Source of the DNA: a bacterium
GTDB taxonomy: Bacteria; Elusimicrobiota; Elusimicrobia; UBA1565; UBA9628
Assembly (NCBI GenBank): GCA_021799485.1
Contig: JAJZAK010000002.1
Span: 62,001-126,000, forward strand
Length of the DNA stretch: 64,000 bases
Direction: 5' to 3'
The translations under genes were made by a program, and so were the position numbers. The notes below the pieces were generated by a model, which saw nothing but the letters and a program-made list of their open reading frames with translations, was not told the origin of the DNA and searched no databases. Below are positions 31,686-39,259 of the stretch, one piece after another (position 1 is the first letter of the stretch; the number at the start of each line of letters is the position of its first letter).

Positions 31686-31787
31686 TCAACTCACGTAAGA
31701 TGTCCCCGAACATGAGCCCGTCAACTCACCTAAGATGTCCCCCAACGGCGCGATATAGCGCTGTTTTGGGGGACATGAGAGATGAGT
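31686..31787. repeat. cluster of three transposase-binding-like repeats at the left end
   Basis: Two direct copies (31686-31710 and 31721-31745) and one inverted copy (about 31766-31787) of a 22-25-bp motif with ATGTCCCC at its core. The inverted copy overlaps the transposase start codon, so the transposase could repress its own gene. Confidence 0.6.
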
Positions 31788-33065
31788 CCATCGGCGAGGA
31801 GGGAGTACGTGAGTCGAATGCAGGTGTTGTATCGGCAAGCAAGAAGACGCCGCGAGAAGGGACGGCTTCTCAACCAAGTCTGCGAGACGCTGGGGCGCAG
31901 CCGGAGACAAGCCAAACGTCTCATGCGGCATCCGGCGTGGCCGGAGCGGCCGTTTCGCCGCCGGGAGCCGGTCTATCCCGAGCGGTTGGTGCGTATTCTC
32001 GAATCGGTGTGGGAAGCGACGCAGCGGGCCTGGTCGGTGAGGCTCAAAGCAGCCCTGCCCTTGTGGATGCCGTGGATCAAGAAGCGCTGGGCGCTCAGCA
32101 CGGAGGAGGAGCGTTTGCTCCTGGCGATGAGCCCGGCCACGATCGACCGGAGGCTGGCGGCCCATCGCAACGCCGTTCGGCGCCGCGTCTATGGCAGGAC
32201 CAAGCCGGGACATTGGCTGATGCGCACGATCCCGATACAGACCGAATGGAACGTCCGGGAAGTCGGCTGGGTCGAGGCGGACACGGTCAGCCACGCCGGA
32301 GGCTCGGCGGCGGGAGTCTTCGCCTCGACCTTAAGCGAGGTCGAATTGTTCTCGGGCTGGGTGGAGCTGGAGGCGACCTTGGGCAAGGGAGCCCGGGACG
32401 TGGCCGCCGCGGCCGATCGCCTCAAGGCGGACATGCCATTCCAACAGAAGGGGATGGACACGGACTGCGGCGAGGAGTTCATCAACTACGCCATGGAGAC
32501 CTGGTGCCGGGACAACCATGTGAGGCGCTTGCGCAGCCGGCCCTACAAGAAGGACGACCAGGCCCATATCGAGCAGAAGAACGGCACGCATGTCCGGCGC
32601 CTCATCGGCTGGGATCGCTACGACACCCAGGAGGCGGTCGACGCCCTCAACGACCTCTACCGCAACGAATGGCGTCTCTTGACGAACCTCTTTCTGCCCT
32701 CGGTCAAGCTTCAGCGCAAGCTGCGGGTCGCCTCGCGGATCAAGCGGCTCTATCACGAGGCCCAGACGCCCCTGGATCGTCTCTGGGAGTCGGGGCAGGG
32801 ACATCGGGAGAAGCTCTTGGATCTGCGCCGCCGGAGGCTTCGTCTCGACCCCTTCGAGCTGGCCCGCGCCGTGGAGAGCAAGCTCCAGCGGATATGGAGC
32901 CTGGCTTCCCGCAGCCCCAGCGCGGCCGCGCCACGCGCCTCAACCAAACGATGGCCCTCACCTTCCGAGTATGCCCCGCCGCCCCTGTTTGTCCCGCATT
33001 CGAACTGCGACATCAAGAGGCTGCGGGCCATGCATTGGCGAGACCGCTGCTTGGGGACGAACTGA
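31782..33065 (+). CDS. DDE transposase with integrase (rve) core
   Basis: A 427-residue transposase. The N-terminal 130 residues are a helix-turn-helix region (LLNQVCETLGRSRRQAKRLM). The catalytic triad fits D-D-X35-E: Asp167 in EADTVSH, Asp228 in GMDTDCGEEF and Glu264 in AHIEQKNGTH. The C-terminal third is basic. The fold is the retroviral-integrase type; the exact IS family needs a database comparison. The reading frame is intact, so the element may still be active. Confidence 0.9.
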   Translation: MSPSARREYVSRMQVLYRQARRRREKGRLLNQVCETLGRSRRQAKRLMRHPAWPERPFRRREPVYPERLVRILESVWEATQRAWSVRLKAALPLWMPWIKKRWALSTEEERLLLAMSPATIDRRLAAHRNAVRRRVYGRTKPGHWLMRTIPIQTEWNVREVGWVEADTVSHAGGSAAGVFASTLSEVELFSGWVELEATLGKGARDVAAAADRLKADMPFQQKGMDTDCGEEFINYAMETWCRDNHVRRLRSRPYKKDDQAHIEQKNGTHVRRLIGWDRYDTQEAVDALNDLYRNEWRLLTNLFLPSVKLQRKLRVASRIKRLYHEAQTPLDRLWESGQGHREKLLDLRRRRLRLDPFELARAVESKLQRIWSLASRSPSAAAPRASTKRWPSPSEYAPPPLFVPHSNCDIKRLRAMHWRDRCLGTN

Positions 33066-33662: not shown

Positions 33663-33692
33663 ACAAATTAGTAGGCTTACCTACTAATTTGT
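33663..33692. promoter_or_regulatory. perfect 13-bp palindrome, probable operator
   Basis: Arms ACAAATTAGTAGG and CCTACTAATTTGT flank a 4-nt CTTA centre with no mismatch. The right arm shares its last T with the first base of the -35 box TTGACA, so a dimeric repressor bound here would block RNA polymerase. There is no T-run after it, so it is not a terminator. Confidence 0.75.
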
Positions 33693-33719
33693 TGACACGG
33701 CGGGACCTCCTGCTACAAT
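33692..33719 (+). promoter_or_regulatory. near-consensus sigma70 promoter giving a leaderless transcript
   Basis: TTGACA (33692-33697), 16-bp spacer, TACAAT (33714-33719). The ATG at 33726 is 7 nt after the -10 box, which is where transcription should begin. Confidence 0.75.
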
Positions 33720-33725
33720 AAGCCC

Positions 33726-34937
33726 ATGAAGCTCTATTTAAGGCCGATGACCCGGCAGCTCCTGGAGCGCCTCCGCGAGCCCCAGCGGCTCCTGCAAATC
33801 CTGGTCGGCCCGCGGCAGGTGGGGAAGACAACGGCAATCGCCCAAGCGGCTCAACTGCTGCGCCGCGCGGGCTTCTCCATCGTCTCGGCCAACGCCGACG
33901 CGCTGGCCTCTCCTCCCCGGGCCTGGATCGCCGAGCACTGGCGCAAGGCCGCCGCCCTGGCGAAATCGGGCAAGCCCGCCCTGCTCGCCTTCGACGAGCT
34001 TCAAAAAATCCCCGGCTGGAGCGAGATCGTCAAGAAAGAGTTCGACGCCGGCCAGCGGCTGCGCCCCTCGCAAAGGCCCCGCGTCGTGATCTCGGGCTCC
34101 TCGGCGCTGATGGTGGAGAAAGGGCTCACGGAAAGCCTCGCCGGCCGCTTCGAGCTCATACGCTTTCCCCATTGGGGCCTGGCCGAGGAATCCGGCGCCT
34201 TCCGCGTCGGGCTTGACCGCCACGTCGCCTTCGGCGGCTATCCCAGGCTGCGCGAGTTCGCCCCGGACGGCGAGCGCTTCCTCGAATACGTGCGCGACTC
34301 CATTATCGAGCCCGTGATCGGCAAGGACATCCTCCTCCTGCACCCCGTGGACAAGCCGGTCCTTCTTGGGCGGCTCTTCGAGTTCGCCTGCCATCATCCC
34401 GCGGAGATCGTGTCCCTCCAGAAGATGCTCGGCCAATTGACCGAGCAAGGCAACGTCACGACGATCGCGAACTACCTCGACCTGCTCTCCAAGGCCTTCC
34501 TGATCTCCCCTCTCCAGAAATACAGCCCGGAGATCCTGCGCGTGCGCTCGTCGAGCCCGAAATTGATCGTCCTCGCGCAGGCGCTGATCGCCGCGGTCCA
34601 AGGCCGCACGGCCGCGGACCTCACCAAGGACCGCGAGCGTTACGGGCGCTGGGCCAAGAACGCGGTCGGCGCGCACCTCCTAAGATCCGGGTTTGAAGTC
34701 TTCTATTGGCGCGACCGCGACGAGGAAATAGACTTCATCGCGCGGCGCCGCGGGACCGTCTGCGCCATCGAGGTCACGGTCTCCGCCAAAAAGCGCGGCG
34801 CCGCCCCGCTTCGGCGCTTGGCGACGCGGCTTGGCATCTCAAAGACCCTCGTCGTCGGCCCGGGCGGCGTCGACCTGGGCGATTTCCTCAAGACGGACCC
34901 CGCCTCCCGGATGAACGATGCGAATCAAAAGCGGTGA
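33726..34937 (+). CDS. AAA-type ATPase with DUF4143 C-terminal domain
   Basis: A 403-residue protein. Walker A is GPRQVGKTT (about residues 28-36), Walker B LLAFDELQKIP, sensor-like VISGSSALM. The C-terminal third holds the DUF4143 region, ending with a nuclease-like block FYWRDRDEEIDFIARRRG..CAIEVTVS that resembles a PD-(D/E)XK core (D-X-E). Such stand-alone ATPases are common in bacteria and archaea, often near mobile or defence genes; their function is not settled. Own palindrome-controlled promoter. Confidence 0.88.
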   Translation: MKLYLRPMTRQLLERLREPQRLLQILVGPRQVGKTTAIAQAAQLLRRAGFSIVSANADALASPPRAWIAEHWRKAAALAKSGKPALLAFDELQKIPGWSEIVKKEFDAGQRLRPSQRPRVVISGSSALMVEKGLTESLAGRFELIRFPHWGLAEESGAFRVGLDRHVAFGGYPRLREFAPDGERFLEYVRDSIIEPVIGKDILLLHPVDKPVLLGRLFEFACHHPAEIVSLQKMLGQLTEQGNVTTIANYLDLLSKAFLISPLQKYSPEILRVRSSSPKLIVLAQALIAAVQGRTAADLTKDRERYGRWAKNAVGAHLLRSGFEVFYWRDRDEEIDFIARRRGTVCAIEVTVSAKKRGAAPLRRLATRLGISKTLVVGPGGVDLGDFLKTDPASRMNDANQKR

Positions 34938-35364: not shown

Positions 35365-36411
35365 TCAGCGGCTTGCGTTCACCTGGCGCTCGATTTCGGC
35401 AATCACGGCCAGGATATCGTCTAGCGACGGCGGAGTTCCGAAGATCATTTCCCGCATCTTCGCGTAGTCCTCCTCCAGTTCCTTCTTGCGGGACGGCGGC
35501 GGAACGAGCCTGAGGCTGCCTGGAACCGCTTCATCATACTTCGCGGCCGCGGCTCGGAAGAAGACTGTCTTATGTTCCACGACGCTCTTGAGCAGCCCCA
35601 GGTCGCCGAGAGCCTTCTTCCCGACGCCTTTCTCGTAGAGCTTCATGACGTCGTAGTAATGCCTGGATTGGCGCGGCAGGAGGGGCTTCCCTGAAGGTCG
35701 ATGGTAGCAGACGTGCAGAATCGTGGCCTTCTCCCAGAATGTCCGTTCGGGAGAGAGGGCTTTCACTTCGCAGGAGGGATTCTTAAACGGCTTCGGAACG
35801 GCTTGCGCGGCGTAGGAAGTGACCGTCGCCTGCTGTGCGGGCCATTGATCTCCCCGCGCGCCAAGCTCGAGCCGGACCACGGGCAGTTGATATCTGGCCA
35901 TGGATTCGTCTCGTTCGCCGACCCCGGCGGGGTAGTGGAACAATAAGGTCTGCGCGTCAGGATCGTCCTGGGCGAGTTCGAGTCGCCAGGTCTTCTGCGA
36001 CTGGGCCGTCCCAAGGGCTGCGGCAAAGGCGCTCCGGAGTTTAGGCAAGTACCGATCCCGGATCATCTCCCTACAGGCATCGGATAGCCCTTCCAGACGT
36101 TTCGATTCCTGCTGCCTGCTCCGAGCCTTCGAGGGATCGTTGTCGCCTCCGAATCCCAGTGCGCTCCGGTCGAAGGAAAGATCGACATCTTCCGAAAATC
36201 GGTCGATGGCCTCGTAGACCTTGGAGAGGCTCGTTCCTCCCTTGAAAACAAGCCCCGCGGGAGAATTTTCCAGGTTGAAGATGCGTTTGAGCGTCCAGCA
36301 GACCCAAAAATCCTTCTCTACCAGGGATGGGCGCATGTCCCTGCGCTTGGCGGATGCGGTGCCGAAGAGCTCGGAGCGGTCGCTCGCGGGAAGACGCGCT
36401 ATGTCATCCAT
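35365..36411 (-). CDS. AbiEii-family nucleotidyltransferase toxin
   Basis: A 348-residue protein from ATG 36411, which overlaps the antitoxin gene by 8 bp. The family signature is clear: VEKDFWVCWTLKRIF, LVFKGGTSLSKVYEAIDRF and SEDVDLSF, giving the nucleotidyltransferase GG(T)S and D-X-D residues. Known AbiEii toxins are type IV TA components that add nucleotides to tRNA and cause growth arrest, giving phage protection. Ends 270 bp before a terminator-like hairpin. Confidence 0.9.
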   Translation of the reverse strand: MDDIARLPASDRSELFGTASAKRRDMRPSLVEKDFWVCWTLKRIFNLENSPAGLVFKGGTSLSKVYEAIDRFSEDVDLSFDRSALGFGGDNDPSKARSRQQESKRLEGLSDACREMIRDRYLPKLRSAFAAALGTAQSQKTWRLELAQDDPDAQTLLFHYPAGVGERDESMARYQLPVVRLELGARGDQWPAQQATVTSYAAQAVPKPFKNPSCEVKALSPERTFWEKATILHVCYHRPSGKPLLPRQSRHYYDVMKLYEKGVGKKALGDLGLLKSVVEHKTVFFRAAAAKYDEAVPGSLRLVPPPSRKKELEEDYAKMREMIFGTPPSLDDILAVIAEIERQVNASR

Positions 36412-37006
36412 TGCAGACCTTGCGTACCGCATCGGCGATCCAGCCGGTGACGTACCACAAGTCCTTGAGGAGCTTGCGTTTGTCCTCAGCTGGAAGCCTC
36501 TTACGCAAATGCGCCACGGTATCCTCCCGTATGGAGTCTTTGCCCATATGGTGAAGCGCTTGGAAGACCATGGCGCTTGTCGGACTGCCTAGGGGAAGGT
36601 CCCTGGGTGAGACGTGCTTCATGGTGAACACGCTGCCGCCCACGCGGATGTTCCTGGACTTGCCGTCAGTGAGGTAAACCGGTTTCGCGGGAACCTGGGT
36701 TGAGAGGCCGAGCCAGTTCGCAGCCACCGCGCCGGACGGGACGACGCGGCTGCCGGTCTTCCTGGCGATGGCCTGGGCGACTGCATCCATGTCCGGGGAG
36801 ACTTCGATACCCAAAGTTGGGTTCAGCTTGGGGATATGATACAGCCCCTGGCCGAGACGCTTGACGGCCTTGTGCGCGGCCAGCCGTGATAAGGCTTGGT
36901 CGACCGCCGCGCGAGAGCCAAGGTCGAGGAAATCCTTGCTGGCGTGGACCTTCCCCGCGCCAAGCCTGCGCATGCGGGCCAAGACCTTCTTCTGGATGGA
37001 ATCCAT
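36404..37006 (-). CDS. AbiEi/DUF6088-type antitoxin and regulator
   Basis: A 200-residue protein with an N-terminal winged-helix-like region (IQKKVLARMRRLGAGKVH, AVDQALSRLAAHKAVKRLGQGLYHIP) and a C-terminal domain typical of DUF6088/AbiEi proteins. These neutralise AbiEii and repress their own promoter. A perfect 9-bp-arm palindrome 12 bp upstream of the start is the likely operator. Confidence 0.85.
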   Translation of the reverse strand: MDSIQKKVLARMRRLGAGKVHASKDFLDLGSRAAVDQALSRLAAHKAVKRLGQGLYHIPKLNPTLGIEVSPDMDAVAQAIARKTGSRVVPSGAVAANWLGLSTQVPAKPVYLTDGKSRNIRVGGSVFTMKHVSPRDLPLGSPTSAMVFQALHHMGKDSIREDTVAHLRKRLPAEDKRKLLKDLWYVTGWIADAVRKVCNG

Positions 37007-37017
37007 GGCGTTTATTG

Positions 37018-37046
37018 TGTCAGAAAAGGATATACTATTTCTGACA
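37018..37046. promoter_or_regulatory. palindromic operator of the abiE operon
   Basis: TGTCAGAAA (37018-37026) and TTTCTGACA (37038-37046) are perfect arms 11 bp apart, immediately before the antitoxin start at 37006. A/T-rich -10-like sequence lies inside the spacer, so binding should block transcription. Confidence 0.7.
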
Positions 37047-38123: not shown

Positions 38124-38207
38124 TCAATGTGGTGATTTTCGGATGAGAGCGACAATGCCTTTGAGTCCAGGGCGCTCCGGCAATTTCCGTCGCTGCCTGA
38201 TGCTCAT
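38124..38207 (-). CDS. 27-codon ORF coupled to the second RhuM gene
   Basis: ATG 38207 overlaps the RhuM stop (ATGA). It codes MSIRQRRKLPERPGLKG and nine further residues. Basic and short; it might be a real coupled micro-protein or chance. Listed because every other junction in this operon shows the same overlap style. Confidence 0.3.
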   Translation of the reverse strand: MSIRQRRKLPERPGLKGIVALIRKSPH

Positions 38208-39259
38208 TGCGCCCCGCGGTTCTTCTTGCGCCTGAGTTCCTTTGCGGGCTTGCTTTCCAGCTGCTTGGCGACCTGGTCGAAGTCTTCGTCTGGCATGGCG
38301 GCTTCCTGGGCCAGCCTTTTCTTCTCGAACTGATCGTATCGCTCCAACGCGAGCTTTTGGGCGACTTCCATGGAAACCTTGCCGGGGTGTTCCAGGATCT
38401 GCCGTTCGTTGAATTTCAGGAAGGCGTCGAGTCTTTCCCTCCAATCCTTCATGTAGAGCGGTTGCCGGCGCTCGGCTTGCGTTTCGGCATAATCGAGGTA
38501 CATGGTGACGATGCGATTCAAGTCTCGAATTTCCTTCTCGTTGAGGTAGTTCTTGGCGATGGTGACATCTTGCCGACGAACCTTTGCGCCCTTCCAGCTT
38601 GTCAAACCCATGTTCGGCTTCTCCGTGTCTGCGCGTTGCGAGATGATCTCGGCGGCGGTATAACCTGTAACCGCCCAGTGGAGTTTGTTCTGGACGATCT
38701 GGAAGAACTCCTGAGTCGCCGGAGCGGCCGGATCGTAGTCGATGGCCAGCTTGTAGATGTCGCGAAGCTTCTGGTAGAAGCGCTTCTCGGAGGCTCGAAT
38801 CTCCCGTATGCGCTCGAGGAGCTCATCGAAATAGTCGGTCCCCAGGGTCCGGCCCTCCTTGAGGCGCTCGTCGTCCATCGTGAAGCCTTTGACGAGGTAT
38901 TCCCGCAGCCGCTCGGTCGCCCATTTGCGAAACTGGGTGCCGCGGTGCGAACGCACCCGATAGCCGACGGATAGGATAACGTCCAGATTGTAAAACGAGG
39001 TGGTGTACTTTTTGCCGTCCGCGGCAGTTGTTAAGTAACTCTTAATAACTGGCTCGGAGTCCAGCTCGCCCTCCTGGAAGATGTTTCGGATATGCATGCT
39101 GATATTCGGGATACTCGTCTGGAATAGCTCGGCCATCAGGGCCTGGGTCAGCCAGACGGTATTGTCCTCGAGACGGACCTGAATGCGGCTCTTGCCGTCC
39201 TCGGACTGGTAAATCAGTATCTCAGACTTGCTACCCGGCTTGCCTTGAGGATCGCTCAT
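38204..39259 (-). CDS. RhuM-family protein
   Basis: A 351-residue protein of the RhuM family, first described as virulence proteins and often found beside type I restriction genes. The N-terminal DNA-binding-like region NTVWLTQALMAELF..HIRNIFQEGEL and the core [20 protein letters not shown] and GTQFRKWATERLREYLVKGF are clear; residues 170-250 hold a second helical domain. Unlike its paralogue at 43775-44806 it lacks a Fic motif. Start overlaps the upstream gene by 4 bp (ATGA). Confidence 0.88.
   Translation of the reverse strand: MSDPQGKPGSKSEILIYQSEDGKSRIQVRLEDNTVWLTQALMAELFQTSIPNISMHIRNIFQEGELDSEPVIKSYLTTAADGKKYTTSFYNLDVILSVGYRVRSHRGTQFRKWATERLREYLVKGFTMDDERLKEGRTLGTDYFDELLERIREIRASEKRFYQKLRDIYKLAIDYDPAAPATQEFFQIVQNKLHWAVTGYTAAEIISQRADTEKPNMGLTSWKGAKVRRQDVTIAKNYLNEKEIRDLNRIVTMYLDYAETQAERRQPLYMKDWRERLDAFLKFNERQILEHPGKVSMEVAQKLALERYDQFEKKRLAQEAAMPDEDFDQVAKQLESKPAKELRRKKNRGAQ

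What the first reader, a model, noticed from the sequence alone, without database searches (positions are those of the whole stretch)
33663..33726. Perfect palindrome fused to a consensus promoter with a leaderless ATPase gene
A 13-bp-arm palindrome without mismatch touches the -35 box of TTGACA-N16-TACAAT, and the ATG lies at the expected +1. This is a compact repressor switch for a DUF4143 ATPase of unknown role, with no regulator gene next to it; the ATPase itself or a distant factor may bind.
Basis: partly seen in the sequence, partly recalled or inferred. Interest (0 to 1): 0.6.

Follow-up and report, generated by a model that had tools for sequence, protein, structure and literature searches.

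The report
Self-read operator of a DUF4143 ATPase
A candidate anti-phage gene in an uncultured Elusimicrobiota bacterium very probably switches itself off by binding a DNA palindrome in its own promoter, and related genes carry different palindromes that change together with the DNA-reading helix of each protein.

Summary
A perfect 13-bp-arm palindrome (33663-33692) shares one base with the -35 of TTGACA-N16-TACAAT, and ATG 33726 is the seventh base after the -10. It is not chance. In 341 Elusimicrobiota genomes, all 14 intact close relatives of the ATPase (57-100% identity) carry TTAGTAGG-N4-CCTACTAA there, almost always with the operator core ending 4-5 bp before the -35, and usually with the start codon 6-8 nt after the -10.

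Best explanation: autoregulation. The ATPase (AAA_14-DUF4143; PADLOC candidate PDC-S01) has a confidently predicted AAA+ / winged-helix / nuclease-like fold. More distant subfamilies carry different palindromes at their promoters, commonest TTACTCA-N6-TGAGTAA, shared between Elusimicrobiota and Bacteroidota. Paralogues in one genome each keep their own subfamily's operator. Operator type tracks the recognition helix, partly confirmed by a prediction written down before testing. No other gene is conserved beside the ATPase.

Still inferred: actual binding, the direction (repression), and the trigger that relieves it. One problem remains: the same palindrome also lies upstream of four PDC-M21 operons and one AbiE operon, mostly in genomes without an intact cognate ATPase. 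Those may be relics, or a second reader may exist.

The parts
33663..33692 (.). Palindromic operator ACAAATTAGTAGG-CTTA-CCTACTAATTTGT (class A)
   Evidence: conserved in all 14 intact close relatives
33692..33697 (+). -35 element TTGACA, shares its first base with the palindrome
   Evidence: same geometry in relatives
33714..33719 (+). -10 element TACAAT, preceded by TG (extended -10)
   Evidence: ends 6 nt before the ATG
33726..34937 (+). AAA_14-DUF4143 ATPase, 403 aa, PADLOC phage-defence candidate PDC-S01; probable leaderless mRNA
   Evidence: AlphaFold2 model pLDDT 93.5, pTM 0.92
33807..33833 (+). Walker A GPRQVGKTT (residues 28-36); Walker B aspartate/glutamate are D90-E91
   Evidence: G28, R30, G33, K34, D90, E91 invariant in 61 sequences
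34356..34571 (+). Winged helix-turn-helix within DUF4143 (residues 211-282)
   Evidence: Helices 211-223, 231-237, 244-256 and strands 260-265, 279-282 in the model
34455..34493 (+). Predicted DNA-recognition helix (residues 244-256), whose sequence follows operator class
34611..34856 (+). C-terminal nuclease-like (PD-(D/E)xK type) domain: D336 and E349 invariant, position 351 is T here instead of the usual K
   Evidence: weak match to YraN-type models

Best explanation
The gene is a one-protein autoregulatory unit. The ATPase carries a winged helix-turn-helix in its DUF4143 part; two copies bind the two half-sites of the palindrome at 33663-33692. The operator core ends 4 bp before the -35 and its outermost base is the first base of the -35, so bound protein should keep sigma-70 RNA polymerase off the promoter. 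The promoter is otherwise strong and the mRNA starts at or next to the ATG, so unbound DNA gives fast expression. Amount of protein, and probably its ATP state or assembly on a foreign trigger (it is a phage-defence candidate), sets the switch. Shown: palindrome, promoter geometry, conservation, predicted fold, co-variation of operator with recognition helix. Inferred: binding by the ATPase, dimeric binding, repression rather than activation, and the trigger.
For: (1) All 14 intact close relatives carry the palindrome at the same place. (2) Across 83 DUF4143 loci, 58% have a palindrome of at least 9/10 arm matches within 130 bp upstream, against 4.7% in dinucleotide shuffles and 14% of 42 window genes; perfect 10-bp arms 39% against 0.1% and 5%. 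(3) Other subfamilies have other operators at their promoters: TTACTCA-N6-TGAGTAA, CTATTCAG-N4-CTGAACAA, TTATCCGAGC-N4-GCTCGGATAA. In one clade the A/T flanks and promoter are as in the window and only the core differs (ACAAATTACTCAAT..ATTGAGTAATTTGTTGACA). (4) Genomes with several members keep a separate operator per member: G220 and G187 (A and C), G232 (A and E), G113 (A and D). (5) The TTACTCA operator is shared by paraphyletic clades in two phyla whose proteins are only about 40% identical. (6) At similar identity outside the HTH (0.43 and 0.40), same-operator pairs are 75% identical in the recognition segment and different-operator pairs 48%; residue 244, first in the recognition helix, is the column best explained by operator class (0.96; next 0.75). 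(7) A prediction written first: in fresh Bacteroidales genomes S245 goes with TGCGTAA and V/T245 with TGAGTAA. The single new S245 and the single new V245 protein fit; among T245 (with T244) five more distant proteins fit and one was mixed. Small residues in general (S or A) went with TGCGTAA in 7 of 7 of the closest clade, against 1 of 5 with V/T (old and new together; the A245 cases were not predicted). (8) Best fold matches are Orc1/Cdc6 initiators bound to DNA, which join AAA+ to a DNA-binding winged helix. (9) No conserved neighbour that could encode another regulator.
Against: No binding or expression data. Palindrome A also lies upstream of four PDC-M21 operons, one AbiE operon and two sites without a clear partner; most of those genomes lack an intact class-A ATPase. 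Residue 244 is not decisive in all phyla: Bacteroidota with V244 use TTGAGAAT, TTGAACA or TGAGTAA, and two proteins with the same nine recognition residues (L209, L210) have different upstream repeats. Operator class and protein are both inherited, so much of the correlation is shared ancestry. 16 of 83 rows have no assigned operator class. Fold matches are of modest TM-score (0.3-0.4).
Confidence: 0.8

Rival explanations
1. A separate regulator, coded elsewhere in the genome or island, reads the palindrome and controls several defence genes with it, the ATPase among them.
For: The same palindrome stands upstream of four of 13 PDC-M21 operons (L034, L035, L067, L068) and an AbiEi/AbiEii operon (L044), largely in genomes with no intact class-A ATPase; the four PDC-M21 sites have only one arm mismatch each, with varying centres.
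Against: Nine of 13 PDC-M21 operons lack the site and nearly all visibly have their own palindrome on the promoter. 13 of 14 genomes with a class-A ATPase have no second site. Operators differ between ATPase paralogues of one genome and follow the ATPase's recognition helix. One PDC-M21 site shares its left flank with an ATPase site (L036 and L067), and L046 and L048 show the palindrome surviving partial loss of the ATPase, so the odd sites may be relics.
Confidence: 0.12
2. The site is an activator site: the ATPase, or a CRP/FNR-type protein, bound just upstream of the -35 recruits polymerase.
For: The site lies upstream of, and barely overlaps, the -35 (centre about -48), a place activators use.
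Against: The promoter already matches the consensus at 11-12 of 12 positions in many members, which is unusual for an activated promoter. In other clades the operator lies over the -10 or between -35 and -10 (core_end_to_-35 of -36 or -26), where bound protein would block polymerase.
Confidence: 0.06
3. The palindrome is a mobile-element end or insertion target (IS605/PATE type), and the ATPase is cargo.
For: It recurs upstream of unrelated defence genes in islands with about 600-bp repeats. PATEs are palindrome-bearing elements (PMC3119063).
Against: Single copy per genome, no partner palindrome downstream, rigid promoter spacing, and sequence change that follows the protein's recognition helix.
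Confidence: 0.02

Closest known systems
AbiEi antitoxin of type IV toxin-antitoxin (AbiE) systems
   Same: DNA-binding protein of a phage-defence locus that negatively autoregulates its promoter by binding inverted repeats (abstracts of PMC7319586, PMC3985639)
   Different: AbiEi is a separate antitoxin gene; here the wHTH is part of a single AAA+ / nuclease-like protein with no partner gene. No sequence relation was found.
BrxR / CapW (WYL) repressors of BREX and CBASS loci
   Same: DNA-binding regulators of defence loci (PMC9122601, PMC9122589, PMC9122588)
   Different: Separate regulator genes with WYL domains; here regulator and effector would be one protein
Archaeal Orc1/Cdc6 initiators
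   Same: AAA+ domain joined to a DNA-binding winged helix; best Foldseek hits, 2qby chains A and B
   Different: Only 9-13% identity and TM about 0.33; replication role, no nuclease-like domain, origin boxes rather than a promoter operator
PADLOC phage-defence candidate PDC-S01 (AAA_14-DUF4143 proteins)
   Same: The window protein matches PDLC04791 over residues 4-393 at E 2.2e-128
   Different: No regulatory operator for the family was found in the library searched; defence activity is only a candidate assignment

Membership tests
AAA_14-DUF4143 ATPase (PF13173, PF13635; PADLOC PDC-S01) | AAA_14 and DUF4143 domains above Pfam cut-offs | tested here: met
   65.8 and 88.2 bits; PDC-S01 426 bits
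AAA_14-DUF4143 ATPase (PF13173, PF13635; PADLOC PDC-S01) | Intact Walker A and B | tested here: met
   G28, G33, K34, D90, E91 invariant
AAA_14-DUF4143 ATPase (PF13173, PF13635; PADLOC PDC-S01) | Anti-phage activity | not testable with these tools
   Needs phage challenge
Autoregulated DNA-binding protein (works like) | DNA-binding domain in the encoded protein | tested here: met
   wHTH at 211-282 in a pLDDT 93.5 model; predicted, not measured
Autoregulated DNA-binding protein (works like) | Conserved operator at its own promoter that co-varies with the recognition helix | tested here: met
Autoregulated DNA-binding protein (works like) | Binding and repression measured | not testable with these tools
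   Needs gel shift and reporter
PD-(D/E)xK nuclease | Acidic residues and catalytic lysine | tested here: not met
   D336 and E349 invariant; position 351 is K in only 4 of 16 class-A rows, T in the window protein
IS605/PATE element | Near-terminal palindromes at both ends, multi-copy | tested here: not met
   One copy per genome; no downstream partner
Type IV AbiE toxin-antitoxin | AbiEi plus AbiEii gene pair | tested here: not met
   Single gene; the AbiE pair at 35365-37006 is a separate converging locus with its own palindrome

The most novel reading that the evidence does not exclude
PDC-S01 ATPases are Orc1/Cdc6-like initiators of a defence reaction that use the promoter palindrome as both operator and nucleation site: the resting protein sits on its own operator, and a phage signal moves it to other DNA, which at once activates the protein and derepresses its gene. 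The recognition helix and operator would form a naturally diversified, readable protein-DNA code.
Probability: 0.15. Interest if true: 0.85.

Novelty: new variant of a known kind. Interest (0 to 1): 0.58.

Why it matters
DUF4143 ATPases are numerous (11 matches in this genome) and of unknown role. If they read their own promoters, each gene carries the DNA ligand of its protein next to it, which gives an immediate handle for assays and a first function for the domain. The families form a natural series of operator-specificity changes on one scaffold, useful for learning how a winged helix changes specificity. It would also suggest a simple way to keep a one-gene defence candidate quiet until needed.

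Tried and rejected
PATE/IS605 palindromes: considered from memory, read in PMC3119063 and PMC4853749, rejected (no second palindrome, single copy, promoter-locked). RNA hairpin: rejected for class A because the palindrome lies upstream of the -35 and is not transcribed from this promoter. Several pattern hits in family f21 share the segment PTRMPIVQKFVEDYVGKK (read as a DnaK-like coding stretch from memory) and were set aside as coding. A first regex for gene starts missed many rows, corrected. L101 was labelled class A by the loose threshold and re-labelled unassigned; L011 was re-labelled class A from its sequence. A scan of viral contigs for the 26-bp form found nothing. PDB sequence search gave only generic P-loop hits. 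Papers: DUF4143 occurs in one paper of the library (on Argonaute in Thermus), which I did not open.

Full report
OBSERVATION. The palindrome ACAAATTAGTAGG-CTTA-CCTACTAATTTGT lies at 33663-33692 with 13-bp perfect arms. Its last base opens TTGACA (33692-33697); a 16-bp spacer leads to TACAAT (33714-33719) and ATG is at 33726. The core occurs once in the window and once in the genome.

THE GENE. The 403-aa product has AAA_14 and DUF4143 and matches PADLOC's phage-defence candidate PDC-S01 at E 2.2e-128. The surroundings are defence-like: an AbiEii/AbiEi pair at 35365-37006 and a RhuM protein (PDC-S05) at 38204-39259. An AlphaFold2 model from an alignment of 61 family members has pLDDT 93.5 and pTM 0.92. 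It shows an AAA+ domain, a winged helix-turn-helix (helices 211-223, 231-237, 244-256; wing strands 260-265, 279-282) and a C-terminal alpha/beta domain with invariant D336 and E349. Foldseek's first hits are Orc1/Cdc6 initiators bound to origin DNA; other origin-recognition subunits, DnaA, RuvB and NLR immune receptors follow, all at modest TM-score.

CONSERVATION. A scan of 341 Elusimicrobiota genomes with the 18-mer (at most 1 mismatch) hit 45 genomes. By my count 24 of the sites also carry the A/T outer arms. Of these, 14 stand before an intact class-A ATPase, two before truncated ATPases (L046, L048), one 122 bp before a more distant ATPase that has its own operator nearer its start (L032), four before PDC-M21 operons, one before AbiEi/AbiEii, and two have no clear partner. 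The protein search shows a clear gap: 14 proteins at 479 bits or more, then none above 333 bits. All 14 have the palindrome. Two relatives outside the phylum or unplaced (L011, L013) have a symmetric variant, TTAGTAGA-N4-TCTATCA, together with two changed recognition-helix residues (T246V, A248S).

GEOMETRY. In class A the core usually ends 4-5 bp before the -35 and the start codon usually follows the -10 by 6-8 nt. One TTACTCA clade has the same geometry. In others the operator's centre is the -10 itself, or the operator lies between -35 and -10. The last two positions suit repression by occlusion directly; the first suits it by its contact with the -35.

CO-VARIATION. Of 83 loci, 58% have a palindrome of 9/10 or better in 130 bp upstream (4.7% in shuffles, 14% for window genes). 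Subfamilies have different operators. On a tree of 79 proteins class A is one clade (100/100) and the TTACTCA operator is spread over several clades in two phyla, which makes it the likely older form; the direction is inferred. Same-operator pairs are 75% identical in the recognition segment and different-operator pairs 48%, at similar identity elsewhere; residue 244 is the best-explained column of the protein. I then wrote down a prediction for residue 245 in Bacteroidales and tested new genomes. It held for the one new S245 and the one new V245 protein and for five more distant T245 proteins, with one mixed T245 case; A245, not predicted, behaved like S245. The same data also show limits: V244 in Bacteroidota goes with several other repeats, and L209 and L210 share recognition residues but not upstream repeats. 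The code is therefore not one residue.

ALTERNATIVES. A separate regulator is the main rival because of the PDC-M21 and AbiE sites. Nine of 13 PDC-M21 operons lack the site, and nearly all show their own palindrome at the promoter. A shared left flank between an ATPase site and a PDC-M21 site (L036, L067), and two truncated ATPases that kept the palindrome, suggest island rearrangement leaving operators behind. This is not proved; the sites are well preserved, and regulation of a neighbour in trans is possible, notably in G151, which has both. No gene family is conserved beside class-A ATPases except between near relatives (flanks are short in some loci).

LITERATURE. In the library searched, DUF4143 occurs in one paper and COG1373 with ATPase in six of other topics; none was found on an operator for the family. 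AbiEi autoregulation and WYL repressors of defence loci are the closest functional parallels (abstracts only).

VERDICT. Real, conserved and best explained as autoregulation by the ATPase's own winged helix. Binding, repression and trigger are inferred.

Noticed in passing
window 37018-37046: A different inverted repeat, TGTCAGAAA-N11-TTTCTGACA, just upstream of the AbiEi (DUF6088)/AbiEii operon (36404-37006, 35365-36432, minus strand): probably that operon's own operator.
   Followed up: no
L034, L035, L067, L068 and L150-L162: PDC-M21 operons (HTH protein plus AbiEii-like nucleotidyltransferase) have their own palindrome (type ATATTGCATATTGCAATATGCAATAT) over the promoter; four of 13 also have the class-A palindrome upstream.
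   Followed up: partly
L073 (7140-7769 and elsewhere), L075, L076, L077: About 600-bp repeats lie between candidate defence genes in family f8 genomes, separating PDC-M21, PDC-S01, RhuM and other units; they may drive gene exchange in these islands.
   Followed up: partly
L046 1495-1940; L048 1501-2021: Class-A palindrome retained next to ATPase genes that have lost much of their coding sequence.
   Followed up: partly
window ATPase residue 351 (34776-34778): The lysine expected of a PD-(D/E)xK site is replaced by T, G or S in 12 of 16 class-A proteins, while most TTACTCA-class proteins keep K (34 of 44): the nuclease-like domain of class A may be inactive.
   Followed up: partly
L004 upstream of its ATPase (G000:C12): A distant DUF4143 paralogue in the same genome has a 16-bp-arm palindrome TTCCTGAAAAAAAGTC.. 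enclosing a TTGACT -35.
   Followed up: no
L167, L168, L170, L181: Another DUF4143 subfamily shares an upstream inverted repeat of its own, TCAACCA-N5-TGGTTGA (one mismatch in L181).
   Followed up: no
L043 1491-1528: A class-A palindrome extended to 17-bp arms without an ATPase, about 300 bp upstream of a ParDE-like pair.
   Followed up: no
window 31782-33065: ORF with a weak integrase-core (rve) match upstream of the ATPase: likely a transposase.
   Followed up: no
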